Position numbers and translations under genes: made by a program | Shown here: positions 49,912 to 62,263 of the stretch, piece by piece | Layout of the letters: the number at the start of each line of letters is the position of its first letter | How positions within the stretch are numbered: the first letter of the stretch is position 1 | Notes under the pieces: model-generated | The model's database searches: none | What the model saw: only the letters and a program-made list of their open reading frames with translations | Told to the model about the DNA's origin: nothing | From: Sphingomonas sp. Leaf34 | GTDB taxonomy: Bacteria > Pseudomonadota > Alphaproteobacteria > Sphingomonadales > Sphingomonadaceae | Length of the DNA: 64,000 nt | NCBI RefSeq assembly: GCF_001421805.1 | Contig: NZ_LMLC01000001.1 | Coordinates: 806,001-870,000 of the forward strand | Direction of reading: 5' to 3'

Positions 49912-50436
49912 GACTCGGCCGCCCTCAGGGGTGCCTGGGCGGGGCCCGGGCGTCGCGCCGCGATCGCCATCGCCGCCCCATCACCATCGCCGAACCGCGT
50001 CATCATGCGCCGGTACAGTTCAGCGGCGCTCGCAAGATCGGTCCCTCGCAAGATCGGTCCCTCGCAAGATCGGTCCCTCAAGCGTCAAGCAGGCGACGCA
50101 GTCCGACGGGATATTGCCCCGCGGCGTGGACGACGGGACGGCAATCTGGCCGATAGCAAATCTCGGTTCGACGCCAGGCTTACGCAGCACTGCGTCAGCT
50201 TGGGCTGTAGACGCCTCGTTCAGTTCGATCGCACCGGCTTCTGTATTGCGCGGACCGACGCCGACCATGCCGATGCCGCACCGTAAGCCCGGTCTTGCGG
50301 GGCCTAGTATTTATGCACCCGATGAACTGCCGACAAGACTAGCAACCTTTAGGAAAATTCGCTGGTTTGTCGTTTGGGATCAACAGGGTGTCGGCCACTC
50401 GGGCTGACTGTGTGACCCCCACCATAAGGGGCTTTC
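49912..50436. other. Gene-poor stretch behind tRNA-Thr
   Basis: About 520 bases with no convincing gene. On the minus strand a short frame (about 49880-50080) reads ELYRRMMTRFGDGDGAAMAIAARR, which looks like the tail of a 3-hydroxyisobutyrate-dehydrogenase-like protein, but no upstream part is found, so at most a remnant. It contains the 16-bp tandem repeat. Possibly an old insertion or deletion scar at the tRNA. Confidence 0.5.
50030..50077. repeat. 16-bp tandem repeat, three copies
   Basis: The unit TCGCAAGATCGGTCCC is repeated three times without a break. No coding frame runs through it that is supported. Not CRISPR: no spacers. Confidence 0.9.
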
Positions 50437-54902: not shown

Positions 54903-56069
54903 ATGGCATCGACGATCTCCTGCGACGTCGCGATCGTTGGCGCGGGTTTGGCCGGCGGGATGATCGCGCTGGCGCTCAAAGCGAAGCATCCGGCGCTCGA
55001 CGTGCGACTGATCGACTCAGCGCCGGTCGTCGGCGGCAATCATCTCTGGTCGTTTTTCGGCAGCGATGTCGCGCAGGCCGATCGCTGGCTCGTCGCGCCG
55101 CTCGTCGCGCATGCGTGGCGCGGCTATGACGTGCGGTTTCCGGCGCATGCGCGGACGATCGACGCGACCTATTATTCGATCGAGAGCGAGCGGCTCGACC
55201 GCGAGGTGCGGCGCGTGCTGCCGCCGCACGCGCTGATGCTCGGGCGCAAGGTCTCTGGCGCGAGCGCGACCGCTGTGGTGCTGGCGGATGGCGACCGGAT
55301 CGAGGCGACCGGCGTGATCGACGTGCGGGGCCCGGGCGACCTGTCGCTGCTCGATCTGGCGTGGCAGAAATTCGTCGGGCGCGAACTGGTGCTGAGCGCG
55401 CCACACGACAGCCCGGTACCGATGGTCATGGACGCGACCGTGCCACAGATCGACGGCTATCGGTTCGTCTATTGCCTGCCGTTCGCCGCGGACCGGATGT
55501 TCGTCGAGGACACCTATTACAGCGACACGCCCGATCTCGATGTCGAGGCGCTGACGACGCGAATCCATGATTATGCCGACGCGCGCGGCTGGGCGGTAGC
55601 GCAGGCGGCGCGGCATGAATCGGGCGTGCTGCCGGTTGCGATGGGCGGCGATTTCGAGGCGTATTGGCGCTCGGGCGGCGCCAAGGTCGCCAAGGCCGGG
55701 ATGCGCGCGGGGATGTTCCATCCGACCACGGGCTACTCGTTGCCCGACGCGGTGCGGACCGCGGCGATGATCGCCGGTCTCGGCGATTTCTCGGGCGCGG
55801 CGCTGCACGAGGCGACGCATGCGATGGCGCGGGCGACGTGGAAAAGCCGCGGCTTCTACCGGATGCTCGACACGATGTTGTTTCGCGCGGCGGAACCCGA
55901 GGAACGCTATCGCATCCTCGAGCGCTTCTATCGCCTATCGCCGTCGCTGATAGGCCGTTTCTATGCCGGACGCTCGACCCTCTCCGACAAGGCGCGGGTC
56001 CTGACCGGCAAGCCCCCCGTCCCCATCGTGCGCGCCGTCCGCGCCATCGCAGGCAGTATGTCATCATGA
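54903..56069 (+). CDS. crtY: Lycopene beta-cyclase
   Basis: 388 residues from the ATG at 54903. CrtY cyclises both ends of lycopene to make beta-carotene. The FAD/NAD-binding CDVAIVGAGLAGGMIALAL is followed by VVGGNHLWSFFGSDV, GYRFVYCLPFAADRMFVEDTYYSDTPDLD and GMFHPTTGYSLPDAVRTA. It is the first gene of the carotenoid cluster and overlaps crtI by ATGA. A good part of an open frame upstream is not used. Confidence 0.96.
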   Translation: MASTISCDVAIVGAGLAGGMIALALKAKHPALDVRLIDSAPVVGGNHLWSFFGSDVAQADRWLVAPLVAHAWRGYDVRFPAHARTIDATYYSIESERLDREVRRVLPPHALMLGRKVSGASATAVVLADGDRIEATGVIDVRGPGDLSLLDLAWQKFVGRELVLSAPHDSPVPMVMDATVPQIDGYRFVYCLPFAADRMFVEDTYYSDTPDLDVEALTTRIHDYADARGWAVAQAARHESGVLPVAMGGDFEAYWRSGGAKVAKAGMRAGMFHPTTGYSLPDAVRTAAMIAGLGDFSGAALHEATHAMARATWKSRGFYRMLDTMLFRAAEPEERYRILERFYRLSPSLIGRFYAGRSTLSDKARVLTGKPPVPIVRAVRAIAGSMSS

Positions 56070-57544
56070 AGACCGCAATAGTCATCGGCGCAGGGTTTGG
56101 CGGGCTGGCGCTCGCGATCCGGTTGCAATCCGCGGGCGTGCAGACGACGATCGTCGAGAGCCGCGACAAGCCCGGCGGGCGTGGCTATTATTGGGAACGC
56201 GACGGCTTCACGTTCGATGCGGGGCCGACCGTCATCACCGATCCCGATTGCCTGCGCGAACTGTGGGCGCTGAGCGGGCACGAGATGAGCGCGGACGTGA
56301 CGCTCGATCCGGTGCTGCCGTTCTACCGGCTGAACTGGCCCGACGGGACGAATTTCGATTATACCAACGACGACGTGCAGATGCGCGCCGAGATCGAGAA
56401 GCTGCATCCCGGGGACTGGGCGGGCTACGAGAAGTTCCTCGCCTATTCGGCGGGCGTCTTCCACGAGGGCTATGAGAAGCTCGGCCACGTCGCGTTCCTC
56501 GACTTCGGGTCGATGATCAAGGCGGCGCCGGCGCTGGCGAAATACCAGGCGTGGCGCTCGGTCTATTCGATCGTGTCGAGCTATGTGAAGTCGGAGAAGC
56601 TGCGCGAGGCTTTGAGCTTCCACACGCTGCTGGTCGGCGGCAACCCGATGACGACGAGCGCGATCTATGCGCTGATCCACAAGCTGGAGCGCGATGGCGG
56701 CGTGTGGTTCGCGCGCGGCGGGACCAACCGGCTGGTCGCGGCGTTGGTGACTCAGTTCGAGCGGCTGGGCGGCGTGCTGCGGCTCGACGATCCGGTAACG
56801 TCGATCGAGACGCTTGGCGACCGCGCGACCGGCGTGACGACCGCGAGCGGCTGGTCGGGTCAGGCCGATGCGGTCGCGGCGAACAGCGACATCATGCACA
56901 CCTATCGCGACCTGCTCGCGACGTCGCGCAGTGCCAAGCGCAAGACCGGGTCGCTCGAGCGGAAGAAATATTCGCCGTCGCTGTTCGTGGTGCATTTTGG
57001 AATCAAGGGCACGTGGCCGGGCATCCCGCACCACATGATCCTGTTCGGGCCGCGCTATAAGGGGCTGCTCGAGGACATTTACGACCACGGCGTGCTGTCT
57101 GAAGATTTCTCGCTGTACCTGCATCATCCGACCGTCACCGATCCTTCGCTGGCGCCGGAGGGGCATTCGACCTTCTATGCGCTGGCGCCGGTGCCGCACA
57201 TGGGGAAGTTCCCGGTCGACTGGGACGAGATCGCGCCGATCCTTGAAAAGCGCATCCTCGACGAGATCGGGCGGCGTTTGATTCCCGATATCCACGAGCG
57301 GATCGTCACGAAATTCTCGTACGCACCGAAGGACTTCGCGCAGGATCTGAATGCGCATCTGGGCTCGGCGTTCTCGCTCGAGCCGGTGCTGACGCAGAGC
57401 GCGTATTTCCGCGTGCACAACCGCGACGAGCATATTCCCAACCTGTTCTTCGTCGGCGCGGGGACGCATCCCGGCGCTGGGATTCCGGGAGTCGTCGGGA
57501 GCGCGAAGGCGACCGCGCGGCTGATGCTAGAAGGCGAGAAGTGA
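56066..57544 (+). CDS. crtI: Phytoene desaturase
   Basis: 492 residues. CrtI converts phytoene to lycopene in four dehydrogenations, using FAD. VIGAGFGGLALAIRLQSAG at 6-24 binds the cofactor, GGRGYYWERDGFTFDAGPTVITDP follows, and the C-terminal signature NLFFVGAGTHPGAGIPGVVGSAKATARLML is intact. The ATG overlaps the crtY stop codon. A hairpin lies after the stop codon. The usual length for bacterial CrtI is about 490-500. Confidence 0.97.
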   Translation: MKTAIVIGAGFGGLALAIRLQSAGVQTTIVESRDKPGGRGYYWERDGFTFDAGPTVITDPDCLRELWALSGHEMSADVTLDPVLPFYRLNWPDGTNFDYTNDDVQMRAEIEKLHPGDWAGYEKFLAYSAGVFHEGYEKLGHVAFLDFGSMIKAAPALAKYQAWRSVYSIVSSYVKSEKLREALSFHTLLVGGNPMTTSAIYALIHKLERDGGVWFARGGTNRLVAALVTQFERLGGVLRLDDPVTSIETLGDRATGVTTASGWSGQADAVAANSDIMHTYRDLLATSRSAKRKTGSLERKKYSPSLFVVHFGIKGTWPGIPHHMILFGPRYKGLLEDIYDHGVLSEDFSLYLHHPTVTDPSLAPEGHSTFYALAPVPHMGKFPVDWDEIAPILEKRILDEIGRRLIPDIHERIVTKFSYAPKDFAQDLNAHLGSAFSLEPVLTQSAYFRVHNRDEHIPNLFFVGAGTHPGAGIPGVVGSAKATARLMLEGEK

Positions 57545-57553
57545 CGCAGCGGC

Positions 57554-57597
57554 GTGGGGTGCGATGGTTGGCGATGGCGTAATGCCGTCTACCCCAC
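57554..57597 (+). terminator. Hairpin after crtI
   Basis: Arms GTGGGGT (57554-57560) and ACCCCAC (57591-57597), ten bases after the crtI stop codon. There is no T tract, so it could be a Rho-associated or processing structure. Confidence 0.35.
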
Positions 57598-57847
57598 CCG
57601 TCGCGCCGTTGCCGCAACGATAGCGTGCTGCCGAGATCAAGCTTCGACGTGTCGTGCCGGGACGATATGGTCCGGAATGGAAGTTGTTTGAGGACCATCC
57701 CCTCCTCACCCGTCACGCACCCCGTCCAGATGCCGCCTGTCTTGTTTTCAGACCGCCGAAACGGATGGGTCATCGATGGTAGCGCGCTGACGATCCCCTA
57801 CCCTCCCTGTCGAGCGGCCGCTCTGACCACGCAGGAAGGATCACGAC
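57598..57847. other. Leader region of the Cys-patterned peptide gene
   Basis: 250 bases with no coding frame supported. It probably contains the promoter of the peptide gene, whose GGAAGGA ribosome-binding site lies just before 57848. Confidence 0.45.
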
Positions 57848-58123
57848 ATGACGATCAAGGTAAACACGCAGGACTGGAACGCACTGACCGCCAGCGAGCA
57901 AAGCGAGATTTCGAGCATTATGAGCGCGCATTTCGACGGCGCGACGATCGAAGCGGCGGACGGCGGCACCGCGATAGCCGACGTCGGCGGCTTTTGCACG
58001 ATACTCTGCAACGCGGCCGAAGCCGCCGCGACCGCACTGTGCAGCAAATTGTCGGGCACCGCGCAGCAGGTCTGCGTTATCGCCGCGCAAACCGGCGGCG
58101 ATCTGTGCCGATCGAGATGTTGA
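57848..58123 (+). CDS. Cys-patterned peptide precursor (candidate bacteriocin or RiPP)
   Basis: 91 residues with a GGAAGGA ribosome-binding site. The first 48 residues (MTIKVNTQDWNALTASEQSE..., ending DVGG) are polar, probably helical and without cysteine, like a leader peptide with a double glycine at 47-48. The last 43 residues hold six cysteines at 50, 54, 65, 76, 87 and 91, i.e. spacings 3-10-10-10-3, a mirror pattern whose 11-residue steps put them on one helix face. Most are preceded by a hydrophobic residue. No modification enzyme is adjacent. Known families are not recognised. Confidence 0.75.
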   Translation: MTIKVNTQDWNALTASEQSEISSIMSAHFDGATIEAADGGTAIADVGGFCTILCNAAEAAATALCSKLSGTAQQVCVIAAQTGGDLCRSRC

Positions 58124-58262
58124 GCGACTGACCGTTCGAACCGACCCTGATCGGTCGGTTCGAACACCGCCCTGGCCACCACCCTCGCCACCGCGCCTGC
58201 CACGTCGTCGCGCAGGCACCAGCACGCTTGTGGCGCGGGCGTGCATCCCTTAGCGGTGCGCT

Positions 58263-58844
58263 ATGAAACGTCTTGCAGTCTATTGCGGGTCGGCGACGCC
58301 GGCTGATCCCCTCTATATCGAAGGCGCGCGCGCGCTGGGTCGGACACTGGCCGAGCGCGGGATAGGCCTCGTCTATGGCGGCGGACGGACCGGGCTGATG
58401 GGGGCGATCGCCGATGGCGCGCTCGAGCGCGGCGGCGAGGTGATCGGCGTAATCCCGCAGGCGCTGGTCGATGCCGAGGTCGCGCATCGCGGGCTGACCG
58501 AACTCCACGTCGTGCAGGGCATGCATCAGCGCAAACAGATGTTTACCGATCTTGCCGACGGGTTCGTGACGATCCCGGGCGGGACGGGGACGATGGACGA
58601 GTTGTGGGAGGCGCTGAGCTGGGCGCAGCTTGGCTATCACGCGGATCCGGTCGGGCTGCTCAACACCGCGGGCTATTACGACCATCTGATCGCGTTCTGG
58701 GAGAAGATGGGCGAGGTCGGGTTCCTGCGACCGCAGCACCGCGATCTACTGATCGTCGCGGATACGCTCGACGGGCTACTCGACCGGATGGCGGAGCATG
58801 TGCCGACGCAGCCGATCGTGCGGATGAACGCGTCGGATCTGTGA
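58263..58844 (+). CDS. LOG family protein (TIGR00730)
   Basis: 193 residues of the Rossmann-fold LOG family: LAVYCGSATPADPLYIEGARALGRTLAERG, VYGGGRTGLMGAIADG (phosphate loop), MHQRKQMFTDLADGFVTIPGGTGTMDELWEALSWAQLG with PGGxGTxxE, and PVGLLNTAGYYDHLIAF. Members hydrolyse cytokinin-type nucleotides or other nucleoside 5-phosphates. It lies between the peptide gene and crtB. Confidence 0.94.
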   Translation: MKRLAVYCGSATPADPLYIEGARALGRTLAERGIGLVYGGGRTGLMGAIADGALERGGEVIGVIPQALVDAEVAHRGLTELHVVQGMHQRKQMFTDLADGFVTIPGGTGTMDELWEALSWAQLGYHADPVGLLNTAGYYDHLIAFWEKMGEVGFLRPQHRDLLIVADTLDGLLDRMAEHVPTQPIVRMNASDL

Positions 58845-58995: not shown

Positions 58996-59943
58996 ATGAC
59001 CTCCGCCCTCCCCACCCGCGCGGACACCGTTGCGGCGGCCAAGGAGTCCATCGCGAAGGGCTCGAAGAGTTTCGCCGCCGCCAGCCTGTTGTTCGACAAG
59101 CCGACGCGCGAGCGGGCGTGGCTGCTCTATGCGTGGTGCCGGCGGTGCGACGATATTGCCGATGGGCAGGATCATGGCCACGGCATGACCGTCGTCGCGG
59201 ACGCCCCCGCGCGGCTGATCGCCTTGTCCGCGATGACCGAGCAGGCGCTGGCGGGCGAGGTAGTCGGCGAGCCGGCGTTCGATGCGCTGCGGATCTTCGC
59301 GGCCGAAACGCGGCTGCCCAAGCGGTTCGCGCGCGATCTCGTCGCCGGTTTTGCGCTCGATGCGGAGGAATGGCGGCCGCGGTCGGAGAACGATCTCTAC
59401 AAATATTGCTACCACGTCGCGGGCGTCGTCGGGTGCATGATGGCGGTGGCGATGGGCGTCGATCCCGACGACGAGGATACGCTCGACCGCGCGTGCGACC
59501 TGGGGATGGCGTTCCAGCTCGCCAACATCGCGCGCGATATCGAGGAGGATGACCGCGTCGGGCGCTGCTATCTGCCTGAAGAGTGGCTGGTCGAGATGGA
59601 CTTTCCGCCGGGCCAGCACATGAAGCCGCCATTCCGGTCCCGGCTCGCCGTGCTGACGAAGCGGATGGCCGCGCGGGCGGCGGCGTTCGAGGCCAGCGCG
59701 CGGCAGGGGACGCCGGCTTTGTCGTTCCGCTCGGCCTGGGCGGTGTTGTCGGCAGCGGGGATCTACGGCGCGATCGGGCGGACGGTGGCGGCACGCCGCG
59801 AGCATGCGTGGGATTACCGCGTGACGACGTCGGGGGCACAGAAACTGGGCTTTATCGCCAAGGCGGCACGAGAATCGGCGCGGCGGGACCATCTGTACCC
59901 GCGGACGCCGCGCAATCCGGGGCTGTGGACGCGGCCGAGGTAG
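58996..59943 (+). CDS. crtB: Phytoene synthase
   Basis: 315 residues. CrtB joins two geranylgeranyl diphosphates head to head to make phytoene. The family motifs are KGSKSFAAASLLFDKPTRERAWLLYAWCRRCDDIADG with the DxxxD metal site, KYCYHVAGVVGCMM, and DLGMAFQLANIARDIEEDDRVGRCYLPEEW, the second Asp-rich motif. The ATG at 58996 gives the normal start. It is separated from crtYI by the peptide and LOG genes. crtE, crtZ and crtG are not in the window. Confidence 0.97.
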   Translation: MTSALPTRADTVAAAKESIAKGSKSFAAASLLFDKPTRERAWLLYAWCRRCDDIADGQDHGHGMTVVADAPARLIALSAMTEQALAGEVVGEPAFDALRIFAAETRLPKRFARDLVAGFALDAEEWRPRSENDLYKYCYHVAGVVGCMMAVAMGVDPDDEDTLDRACDLGMAFQLANIARDIEEDDRVGRCYLPEEWLVEMDFPPGQHMKPPFRSRLAVLTKRMAARAAAFEASARQGTPALSFRSAWAVLSAAGIYGAIGRTVAARREHAWDYRVTTSGAQKLGFIAKAARESARRDHLYPRTPRNPGLWTRPR

Positions 59944-60312: not shown

Positions 60313-60433
60313 TTCATTCTCCAGGGGATCGCGGTGGCCGACGCTGGACACGGTAACAAAAGCGACGAAGTGGCAGGATTGTTCCCCCAACTGGTTTCGC
60401 CAGGGCTTGACTGCTCCTACATCGCGTCGATCC

Positions 60434-62263
60434 ATGCCACCTGATACTTACACCTCCACCCGCGCGGACCAGCCGCTGCTGCCGACGCTCCGCCGTTTCC
60501 TGCCGTTCCTGTGGCCAGCCGGGCAGCCCAAGCTGAAGGCACGGATCGTTGTCGCGATGCTGCTGGTGATCGCGTCGAAGCTGGTCCAGGTGTTCGGCGC
60601 GGCGTTCACGCTGAAATATGCGGTCGACGCGATGGCGGGGAACGACCGCGGTGCGCTGACTCTCGTCGTGCTGCTGGTGGTCGGATATGCGGCGTCGCGG
60701 TTCGGGACGACGCTGTTCGACAATCTGCGCAACGCGGTGTTCGAGCGTGTCGGGCAGGATGCGTCGCGGCGGCTCGCCGCGCAGGTGTTTCGCCACCTGC
60801 ATGCGCTGAGCCTTGATTTCCATCTGTCGCGGCGAACGGGCGCGGTGACCAAAGTGGTCGAGCGCGGGACCAAGAGCATCGACACGATGCTATACTTCCT
60901 GCTGTTCAACATCGCGCCGACACTATTCGAACTCGTGCTGGTGCTCGGGCTGTTCTGGACCAAGTTCGGCTGGCCGCTGGTGATCGCCACCGTCGTGATG
61001 GTCGCCGGCTATATCGCGTTCACGCGGATGGTGACTGACTGGCGCAACGCACTGCGCGCGCGGATGAACGACCTCGATACCGGCGCGGTCGCGCATGCGG
61101 TGGATTCGCTGCTGAACTTCGAAACGGTCAAGTATTTCGGCGCGGAGGAGCGCGAGGCGAAACGCTACGACAGCGCGATCACGGCGTATTCGGAAGCTGC
61201 GGTGAAGAGCGAGAATTCGCTCGCGTGGCTGAACCTGGGCCAGGCGCTGATCACCAACCTGATGCTCGCGGGCGGCATGGGGTTCGTCGTGTGGCGGTGG
61301 AGCCGCGGCGAAGCGTCGGCGGGCGACGTGGTATTCGTGTCGACGTTGCTCGCGCAGCTGTTTCGCCCGCTCGACCTGCTGGGGATGGTGTATCGCACGA
61401 TCCGCCAAGGCGCGCTCGACATGGCGGCGATGTTCGACCTGATCGATACGCCCGCCTCCGTGATCGATGCGCGGGATGCGCCGGCGTTGACGGTGACCGC
61501 GGGGCATGTGCGGTTCGAGAATGTCTCGTTTGGTTATGACGCCGGCCGGCCGATCCTGCGCGACCTCGAACTCGATGTGCCGGCGGGATCGACGCTCGCG
61601 GTGGTCGGGCCGTCGGGGGCGGGCAAGTCGACGCTCGCGAGGCTGCTGTACCGGTTCTACGATTTGACGGGCGGGCGGATCACCGTCGACGGGCAGGATA
61701 TTGCCGAAGTGCGCCAGGCGTCGTTGCGCGCCGCGATCGGGATCGTGCCGCAGGACACGGTGCTGTTCAACGACACGATCGGGTACAACATCGCCTATGG
61801 TCGCGAGGGCGCCGAGATGCCCGAAGTCGAGTCGGCGGCGAAGGGTGCGGCGATCGCGGGCTTCATCGAGCGCCAGCCGCTGGGCTACGCGACTCGGGTC
61901 GGCGAACGCGGCCTGAAGCTGTCGGGCGGCGAGAAACAGCGCGTGGCGATCGCCCGGACGTTGCTCAAGAACCCGCCGATCCTGATCCTCGACGAGGCGA
62001 CGTCGGCACTCGACAGCCGCACCGAGGCCGAAATCCTCGACACGCTAGAGGCGATCGAGCGCGGTCGCACCACGATCGTGATCGCGCACCGTTTGTCGAC
62101 CGTGGTGCATGCCGACCAGATCGTCGTGCTCGAGGCGGGGCGCATCGTCGAGAAGGGCACGCATGGCGAGCTGCTGCGCCGGGAGGGCGTCTATGCGGAG
62201 ATGTGGAATCGCCAGGCGCAGGAGCGTGCGGGACAGGATGACGGGGCGCTGGCGGCGGAGTAG
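60434..62263 (+). CDS. Atm1-type ABC exporter (fused permease and ATPase)
   Basis: 609 residues. Residues 25-330 hold the membrane domain (about six helices) with LDFHLSRRTGAVTKVVERGTKSID and NYETVKYFGAEEREAKRYD-type text, diagnostic of the Atm1/HMT1 subfamily that exports glutathione-linked compounds, sulfur or metal conjugates. The ATPase has VVGPSGAGKSTLARLLYRFYD, LKLSGGEKQRVAIARTLL, LILDEATSALDSRTE and IAHRLSTVVHADQI. The ATG at 60434 is preferred over an upstream TTG. Confidence 0.93.
   Translation: MPPDTYTSTRADQPLLPTLRRFLPFLWPAGQPKLKARIVVAMLLVIASKLVQVFGAAFTLKYAVDAMAGNDRGALTLVVLLVVGYAASRFGTTLFDNLRNAVFERVGQDASRRLAAQVFRHLHALSLDFHLSRRTGAVTKVVERGTKSIDTMLYFLLFNIAPTLFELVLVLGLFWTKFGWPLVIATVVMVAGYIAFTRMVTDWRNALRARMNDLDTGAVAHAVDSLLNFETVKYFGAEEREAKRYDSAITAYSEAAVKSENSLAWLNLGQALITNLMLAGGMGFVVWRWSRGEASAGDVVFVSTLLAQLFRPLDLLGMVYRTIRQGALDMAAMFDLIDTPASVIDARDAPALTVTAGHVRFENVSFGYDAGRPILRDLELDVPAGSTLAVVGPSGAGKSTLARLLYRFYDLTGGRITVDGQDIAEVRQASLRAAIGIVPQDTVLFNDTIGYNIAYGREGAEMPEVESAAKGAAIAGFIERQPLGYATRVGERGLKLSGGEKQRVAIARTLLKNPPILILDEATSALDSRTEAEILDTLEAIERGRTTIVIAHRLSTVVHADQIVVLEAGRIVEKGTHGELLRREGVYAEMWNRQAQERAGQDDGALAAE

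What the first reader, a model, noticed from the sequence alone, without database searches (positions are those of the whole stretch)
57848..58123. Peptide with mirror-symmetric cysteine spacing (3-10-10-10-3)
Seen: cysteines at 50, 54, 65, 76, 87 and 91 in a 91-residue ORF, none in the first half, with a double glycine just before the cysteine part. Steps of 4 and 11 place them on one face of a helix. Inference: a leader plus core peptide, such as a disulfide-stapled helical bacteriocin or a RiPP substrate. It sits within a carotenoid cluster with no maturation genes.
Basis: partly seen in the sequence, partly recalled or inferred. Interest (0 to 1): 0.83.

Follow-up and report, generated by a model that had tools for sequence, protein, structure and literature searches.

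The report
Sphingomonas six-cysteine helical-hairpin peptide gene
A small, unnamed Sphingomonas gene encodes a leader-like part joined to a tiny predicted two-helix hairpin whose six mirror-placed cysteines face each other in three pairs; the gene is real and conserved in relatives, but its job, and whether it leaves the cell, are unknown.

Summary
The 91-aa ORF has Cys at 50/54/65/76/87/91. A profile found ten members, this one included, in 295 same-genus genomes. All ten keep six Cys with spacing 3-10-(9 to 11)-10-3; inside the Cys part length varies only at the turn. All lie between crtI and a LOG-family gene. The symmetry fits an antiparallel helical hairpin: AlphaFold predicts one (pLDDT 92.6 for the hairpin alone), and in ideal geometry only the nested pairing 50-91/54-87/65-76 brings all six together. 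The gene looks like its own transcription unit, and alleles are exchanged and lost at one site. 'Leader plus core' is plausible. The double-glycine/RiPP reading is not supported: the GG is not conserved, and the window's genome has no C39 peptidase, SPASM, LanC, MNIO or YcaO match. Best reading: an orphan family working like cystine-stapled alpha-hairpins, perhaps acting outside the cell. Main rival: a cytosolic thiol metal binder. No family library searched named it.

The parts
57848..58123 (+). CDS of the six-Cys hairpin protein, 91 aa
57848..57967 (+). N-terminal acidic, leader-like part (residues 1-40): predicted strand-helix-helix-strand at 2-36
   Evidence: AlphaFold model; charge; invariant V5, W10, Q18, I21, I24, F29, G31, T33, E35
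57965..57988 (+). disordered, length-variable linker (residues 40-47); its end is the first G of the non-conserved GG
   Evidence: pLDDT under 50 at residues 40-47; gaps and GG/GS/GN/NN variation
57992..58120 (+). six-Cys helical hairpin (residues 49-91), helices about 48-65 and 71-90, proposed Cys pairs 50-91, 54-87, 65-76
   Evidence: hairpin alone, pLDDT 92.6; geometry; pairing inferred
57833..57839 (+). Shine-Dalgarno-like AGGAAGG
   Evidence: a purine stretch at the same place in the other 9 members
57672..57680 (+). upstream box 1, CCGGAATGG (commonest family form TCCGAAACGG)
   Evidence: the motif was defined after seeing these sequences
57756..57764 (+). upstream box 2, CCGAAACGG, 84 bp after box 1
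   Evidence: the spaced pair occurs once in this genome, here, and its reversed control also once
57799..57804 (+). possible -10 element TACCCT (aligned with TAGCAT, TAGCGT, TAGCCT in relatives)
   Evidence: alignment; inference; no sigma-70 consensus site found
58134..58165 (+). 13-bp RNA hairpin just after the stop codon; stem letters differ between allele groups
56069..57544 (+). crtI-type desaturase (name by recall from the cluster), upstream neighbour in all 10 members
   Evidence: Pfam Amino_oxidase
58263..58844 (+). LOG-family (Lysine_decarbox) gene, downstream neighbour in all 10 members
   Evidence: Pfam
58996..59943 (+). crtB-type phytoene synthase
   Evidence: Pfam SQS_PSY

Best explanation
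A narrow Sphingomonas family of small two-part proteins. The N-terminal 35-40 residues form a small acidic folded unit that acts as a leader or tether; a floppy linker joins it to a 43-residue antiparallel helical hairpin. The six cysteines form three cross-helix pairs nested about the turn (50-91, 54-87, 65-76), which is why their spacing reads the same in both directions. Shown here: conservation, spacing, fixed gene order, purifying selection, allele exchange and patchy presence. Predicted: the hairpin. Inferred: that the pairs are disulfides and that the hairpin works outside the cytoplasm (an exported, protease-proof interaction or antagonism peptide), leaving by a route other than a double-glycine C39 exporter and without the radical-SAM (SPASM), lanthionine, MNIO or YcaO chemistry tested. 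It seems to be expressed on its own and not to be a part of the carotenoid pathway.
For: All 10 members keep six Cys; between C3 and C4 the length is 9, 10 or 11, while the steps 3-10 and 10-3 never change. AlphaFold gives a hairpin in the full protein (helices 49-65 and 71-89) and alone (pLDDT 92.6). Of 15 pairings in ideal two-helix geometry, only the nested one brings all three pairs together (best largest CB-CB found 2.7 A; next 6.3 and 6.4 A, the other twelve over 15 A). Leader-like charge split in 10 of 10. Upstream box in 10 of 10 and an RNA hairpin after the stop in 10 of 10. Accessory, fast-changing locus: 10 of 295 genomes, five changes on the flank tree, four forced by well-supported branches, protein identity 43% where crtI is 99% and LOG 96% (G000 against G018); allele tree conflicts with flank tree. 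Such turnover is expected of an interaction gene rather than of a pathway enzyme (inference).
Against: No signal peptide is evident by eye (no prediction program was run) and no exporter or oxidase was identified, so export and disulfides are unproved; in the cytosol the thiols would probably stay free. No independent second (immunity) gene was apparent in the crtI-LOG gap; the matching extra ORFs that one search lists were mostly frames overlapping the peptide gene, and this was not a proper coding test. The hairpin's net charge is -0.3 to +1.7, not strongly cationic. The full-length model is only fair (mean pLDDT 73.9) and rests on 7 sequences; an alanine-rich stretch favours helices in any prediction. 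The geometry test assumes two straight ideal helices. Patchy presence could also mean a dispensable gene of little effect.
Confidence: 0.45

Rival explanations
1. A cytosolic thiol protein: the hairpin, alone or as a dimer making a four-helix bundle, binds Cu(I), Zn or another soft metal through CX3C sites, or acts as a thiol redox switch.
For: No export signal seen by eye and no C39 exporter in the genome. Csp3 copper storage proteins recur among the weak fold matches, with 24-30% identity over 40-45 positions in most rows (14-21% over longer Csp alignments), and in Cu(I)-MtCsp3 eight Cu(I) sites are made by CXXXC motifs within one helix (PMC5171941, passages).
Against: No Pfam match over cut-off for four members; fold matches to Csp3 are no better than to unrelated helical hairpins (Z about 4); the two Csp3s described have 18 and 19 Cys plus conserved His, here six Cys and no His in the hairpin; allele exchange, patchy presence and fast divergence would be unusual for a storage protein (inference).
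Confidence: 0.3
2. A small regulator, adaptor or stress protein acting with the neighbouring crt or LOG genes.
For: All 10 members sit between crtI and LOG.
Against: 17 of the 30 nearest crtI loci have crtI and LOG only 182-197 bp apart and no peptide, so neither neighbour needs it; it has its own upstream boxes and a hairpin after the stop; the stretch just before the LOG start looks alike by eye in carriers and in the nine non-carriers printed.
Confidence: 0.15
3. A RiPP or double-glycine bacteriocin matured by unlinked known enzymes (C39 transporter, SPASM radical SAM, LanC, MNIO or YcaO).
For: Leader-like anatomy; GG at 47-48.
Against: None of the five families in the window's 100%-complete genome; carriers are not clearly enriched for any of them; GG near the first Cys in only 5 of 10 members.
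Confidence: 0.06
4. A chance open reading frame.
For: Short ORF; no family match.
Against: Nine homologues with aligned starts (one codon off in G303) and stops and all six Cys, indels in threes, dN/dS 0.09-0.42.
Confidence: 0.01

Closest known systems
Plant alpha-hairpinins (4C motif CX3CX4-20CX3C; 6C motif CX3CX3CX4-20CX3CX3C; PMC11591084, passages read)
   Same: Helix-loop-helix with mirror-placed CX3C pairs; hairpinins have two disulfide bonds.
   Different: Here the third pair lies 11 residues inside the CX3C pair, giving CX3C-X10-C-X9-11-C-X10-CX3C, which fits neither motif; bacterial; has a folded acidic N-part; disulfides not shown.
Glycocins with nested disulfides, including three-disulfide thermoglycocin and orniglycocin (PMC12457901, passages read)
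   Same: Bacterial leader-core peptides with two helices and two nested disulfides.
   Different: The third disulfide there makes a C-terminal loop; they are glycosylated and cut by a C39 protease; this genome has no C39 match.
Csp3 copper storage proteins (PMC5171941, passages read)
   Same: Cys from helices pointing into a bundle core, CXXXC within a helix; recurrent weak fold match.
   Different: Four-helix bundles with 18-19 Cys and conserved His; no sequence-family match here.
Neurotoxin B-IV (PDB 1vib), Vanabin2 (1vfi), saposins
   Same: Small helical proteins among the fold matches of the hairpin alone (Z 4.4, rmsd 1.9 over 43; Z 4.0, rmsd 3.2 over 43; saposins Z 3.3-4.2 over 44-45); that they are disulfide-braced is recalled.
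   Different: No sequence relation shown; Z at this level is common for helical pairs.

Membership tests
Double-glycine (C39/PCAT) leader peptide | conserved GG/GA/GS at the end of the leader | tested here: not met
   GG within four residues before the first Cys in 5 of 10 members, GS in 1, neither in 4
Double-glycine (C39/PCAT) leader peptide | C39 peptidase in the genome | tested here: not met
   PF03412: 0 in G000; 2 of 10 carriers, 7 of 17 non-carriers
Sactipeptide or ranthipeptide (SPASM radical SAM) | SPASM-domain enzyme in the genome | tested here: not met
   PF13186: 0 in G000; 1 of 10 carriers, 1 of 17 non-carriers
Lanthipeptide | LanC-like cyclase in the genome | tested here: not met
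   PF05147: 0 in G000; 1 of 10 carriers, 2 of 17 non-carriers
MNIO (DUF692) modified peptide | MNIO enzyme in the genome | tested here: not met
   PF05114: 0 of 10 carriers, 1 of 17 non-carriers
YcaO azoline peptide | YcaO in the genome | tested here: not met
   PF02624: 0 in G000; but 6 of 10 carriers and 7 of 17 non-carriers have one
Plant alpha-hairpinin | 4C or 6C motif as defined in PMC11591084 | tested here: not met
   spacing 3-10-(9 to 11)-10-3 in 10 of 10 against the motifs
Plant alpha-hairpinin | helix-loop-helix | tested here: met
   predicted only:
Plant alpha-hairpinin | cross-helix disulfides | not testable with these tools
   geometry allows three nested pairs; redox state unknown
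Glycocin | glycosyltransferase for the peptide | not tested
   the genome was not searched for one
Csp copper storage protein | sequence-family match | tested here: not met
   no Pfam match over cut-off for four members
Csp copper storage protein | Cys-lined four-helix bundle binding Cu(I) | tested here: inconclusive
   hairpin only; weak Csp3 matches, Z about 4; a dimer was not modelled

The most novel reading that the evidence does not exclude
A new bacterial peptide class: an exported three-staple helical hairpin carried by a folded acidic leader and released without any of the five usual RiPP enzyme families tested, so through an unknown route, and diversified among Sphingomonas species by swapping whole alleles at one chromosomal site.
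Probability: 0.2. Interest if true: 0.75.

Novelty: new variant of a known kind. Interest (0 to 1): 0.5.

Why it matters
It is an orphan, clearly selected small protein with a very regular cysteine design and no partner gene found so far. If exported, it would point to an undescribed export route in Alphaproteobacteria and to a compact, naturally varied scaffold of stapled hairpins; if cytosolic, it would be a minimal thiol hairpin for metal binding or redox sensing. Either way the natural lack of the gene in close relatives (short crtI-LOG gap) makes its function directly testable.

Tried and rejected
Sequence families: Pfam gave only sub-threshold hits for P0001 (DUF2807 E 0.033, aRib 0.29) and none for three relatives; NCBIfam none (P0001 only); PADLOC none (three members); PHROGs only E 0.15 or worse (three members). 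PDB by profile: best E 0.44. Plasmid and phage records: no match. Viral contigs: none confirmed. Genome contigs with one sequence: none confirmed; with the alignment: 6 loci, five Sphingomonas and one uncultured bacterium. Rfam over 57300-58400: none.

Wider profile searches: in the order sample only G000 of 396 genomes (84 genera) matched at E 0.001; in the class sample G000 and 3 others of 381 at E 0.01. Of those three I read two, L153 and L154, and neither keeps the Cys pattern; the third, L155, covers only profile positions 7-39 in a 609-residue frame and was not read. In these runs only 13 of the first-look candidates were scored in many genomes (17), so distant members could be missed. 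Hits at E 0.0023 and worse that cover positions 6-46 lie in longer frames; the four of these that I translated (L038, L039, L043, L050) look alike and read like TrbJ-type conjugation proteins (recalled), so they are not taken as relatives.

Fold searches: whole model against PDB best E 0.48, BFVD best E 1.1; VIA second look best Z 5.1; hairpin alone best Foldseek E 3.0 and Z 7.0 to a trypanosome surface protein: no clear relative. The N-terminal part was not modelled alone.

crtI-downstream stretches of 40 further relatives: no ORF with the six-Cys pattern; ORFs listed in ten of the longer gaps show nothing like it, one of these gaps (L146) being mostly masked. The start pattern used for LOG there was loose, so those gap lengths are rough. 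Other ORFs in the ten carriers' gaps were compared all against all: the listed matches are mostly frames overlapping the peptide gene or hits within one allele group; I saw no clear second gene, but this is not a coding test.

Synonymous comparison: 20 of the 36 crtI rows gave infinite dN because the crtI rows were not codon-aligned; I dropped the crtI columns and used LOG only; G298 was left out. G298 is 80% complete and its crtI end reads at 38% identity, probably frameshifted; it was left out of the 9-row flank tree but is in the 28-row tree. From the 28-row tree G160 was dropped because its LOG was cut, and G276, G222 and G029 were never put in because no LOG start was found within reach.

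Literature: searches listed no paper on this peptide; that is all I can say about print. Papers read by passages only: PMC8170138, PMC5171941, PMC11591084, PMC12457901. In PMC8170138 the antiSMASH table calls contig JACONT010000020 8580-33653 of S. albertensis, which covers this gene, 'terpene'.

Full report
WHAT IS THERE. The finding's ORF is exactly as described: 91 codons at 57848-58123 (+), cysteines at 50, 54, 65, 76, 87 and 91, GG at 47-48, with AGGAAGG ending eight bases before the ATG. Palindromic spacing of six cysteines is rare by chance (392 of 400,000 random placements in 91 residues; 1,839 of 400,000 within residues 50-91) and unique among the 280 six-Cys runs in the window's ORF-like stretches of 40 aa or more.

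IT IS A REAL, NARROW FAMILY. tblastn over 150 relatives found three clear homologues besides the window's own; a profile over 295 genomes of the genus found ten members including the window's (worst E 2.5e-31; the next hit is E 0.0023). All ten have six Cys with spacing 3-10-10-10-3 (seven members), 3-10-9-10-3 (two) or 3-10-11-10-3 (one). Starts and stops align (the start of G303 one codon off), indels are in threes, and whole-gene dN/dS is 0.09-0.42 in ten pairs. In the sampled order and class the profile found no further credible member, with the limits that not all first-look candidates were scored and one weak hit was not read. Carriers with record titles: Sphingomonas sp. Leaf20, S. albertensis, S. 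aurantiaca MA101b, Sphingomonas sp. A2-49, Sphingomonas sp. H160509 and an uncultured bacterium isolate; their coordinates match handles G074, G155, G158, G303, G298 and G071.

ONE CHROMOSOMAL SITE, PATCHY AND SWAPPED. All ten lie between crtI and a LOG-family gene (Lysine_decarbox, PF03641), crtI stop to LOG start 552-736 bp (Pfam for the window's genes). Of the 30 nearest crtI loci, 8 carry the gene, 17 have a short gap of 182-197 bp without it, and 5 have other arrangements. A tree of crtI end and LOG for 28 genomes (10 carriers, 18 not) needs five gains or losses, four of them forced by well-supported branches, and rejects the carriers as one clade (p-AU 4.8e-22). Since the deep branch G303 carries it at the same place, early presence with several losses is a simple reading, but exchange also occurs: the peptide tree puts G071, G264 and G298 with G158 and G270 (97/98) and rejects grouping them with G018 and G155 (p-AU 2.3e-7), while the flanks put G071 and G264 with G018 and G155 at 100/100 and reject the peptide's grouping (p-AU 0.026). 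Synonymous distance (simple Nei-Gojobori count, small numbers, often near saturation) is higher in the peptide than in LOG in 23 of 24 comparisons between the three allele groups {G000, G074}, {G018, G155} and {G071, G264, G270, G158, G303}; the exception is G074-G155 (0.76 against 0.84), and G000-G155 is close (0.76 against 0.57). Inside groups it goes both ways: G071-G264 0.02 against 0.20, G000-G074 0.27 against 0.47, but G018-G155 1.24 against 0.20. Protein identity can be 43% where crtI is 99% and LOG 96% (G000 and G018).

ITS OWN TRANSCRIPTION UNIT (INFERRED). Upstream of all ten lies a box TCCG-A/G-A-A/T-C/T-GG; a second box follows 62-84 bp later as a match to the same pattern (first T aside) in four members and as a degenerate, aligned one in the other six, then a TAGCAT-like element. 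The motif was defined after looking at these sequences. In a search of 14 genomes for the spaced pair (a slightly stricter pattern), 7 had one match each: four at the peptide gene (G000, G074, G018, G155) and three elsewhere (G158, G270, G303); the reversed control pattern matched once in each of three genomes, G000 among them. So the pair is rare, but not specific to this gene in every carrier. Directly after the stop there is an RNA hairpin in all ten, with different stem letters in different allele groups; against shuffles it is strong in five of the six tested (z -2.8 to -5.4) and not in G155 (z -0.8). No sigma-70 consensus promoter or T-tailed terminator was detected.

ANATOMY. AlphaFold with 7 sequences gives strand-helix-helix-strand for residues 2-36, disorder at 40-47 and a two-helix hairpin at 49-65 and 71-89 (mean pLDDT 73.9). 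The hairpin alone gives pLDDT 92.6 with helices at 48-65 and 71-90. The N-part is acidic in all ten (-3.5 to -7.5), the Cys part -0.3 to +1.7. The cysteine numbers sum to 141 in each nested pair (50+91, 54+87, 65+76). With two ideal antiparallel helices, 400,000 random geometries and all 15 pairings, only the nested pairing can place all three pairs close (largest CB-CB 2.7 A at best); the next two pairings reach 6.3 and 6.4 A, the other twelve stay above 15 A. Length changes in the Cys part fall at the turn. So the mirror symmetry is explained if the hairpin is real: each Cys has its partner straight across.

HOW IT MAY WORK. The pairing could be three disulfides (then the hairpin belongs outside the cytoplasm) or a thiol site for a metal (then inside). 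For export speak the leader-like anatomy, the allele turnover and the precedents of stapled hairpins; against it, I see no signal peptide by eye and found no exporter. The double-glycine route is contradicted: GG stands within four residues before the first Cys in only 5 of 10 members, and the window's genome has no C39 peptidase match. Four other RiPP enzyme families are also absent from it: SPASM, MNIO, LanC, YcaO. Carriers show no clear excess of any of the five (C39 2 of 10 against 7 of 17 non-carriers; SPASM 1 against 1; MNIO 0 against 1; LanC 1 against 2; YcaO 6 against 7). These tests do not cover glycosyltransferases, other radical-SAM types or general secretion, and a family search can miss diverged genes.

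AGAINST KNOWN KINDS. It works like alpha-hairpinins and nested-disulfide glycocins in layout, but its Cys spacing fits neither hairpinin motif, and its genome lacks the C39 transporter that glycocins use. Csp3 copper storage proteins are the main inside-the-cell analogy (CXXXC sites within helices; weak fold matches) but without sequence membership. I call it a new variant of a known kind: an unnamed family of Cys-paired alpha-hairpin proteins that matched no family in the libraries searched.

VERDICT. Observation confirmed; interpretation partly supported. Confidence (my estimates): real gene 0.99; antiparallel hairpin with nested Cys pairing about 0.75; exported stapled peptide about 0.45; cytosolic metal or redox role about 0.3.

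Noticed in passing
L059, L060, L062, L071, L073, L075, L077, L082 (crtI-LOG gaps of non-carriers): The short gap in genomes without the peptide is, by eye, largely an imperfect inverted repeat (for example GTTCACGCGGAGACGCGGAG ... CTCCGCGTCTCCGCGTGAAC in L071); G155 carries such a repeat as well as the peptide gene. The four repeat cores tried were not found in the window (+ strand pattern search).
   Followed up: partly
window 57812-57823 and the same place in several other alleles: A short palindrome sits just before the Shine-Dalgarno site with different letters in different alleles (GAGCGGCCGCTC, CGACCGGATACCGGTCG, CGACCGGACGTCCGGTCG), possibly an operator or mRNA stem.
   Followed up: no
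window 50029-50079: Perfect 16-bp tandem repeat, 3.2 copies of CTCGCAAGATCGGTCC.
   Followed up: no
window 60407-62263: ABC transporter (ABC_membrane and ABC_tran, no C39 domain reported) downstream of crtB; by recall it resembles Atm1-type exporters. A link to a thiol peptide was not tested.
   Followed up: no
L005, L032, L033, L034 (G071, G264, G298, G270): 200 bp upstream of the peptide: The upstream region is much poorer in G+C (46.5-50%) than its flanks (about 65%) in these four members (G158 52.5%), which would fit import.
   Followed up: no
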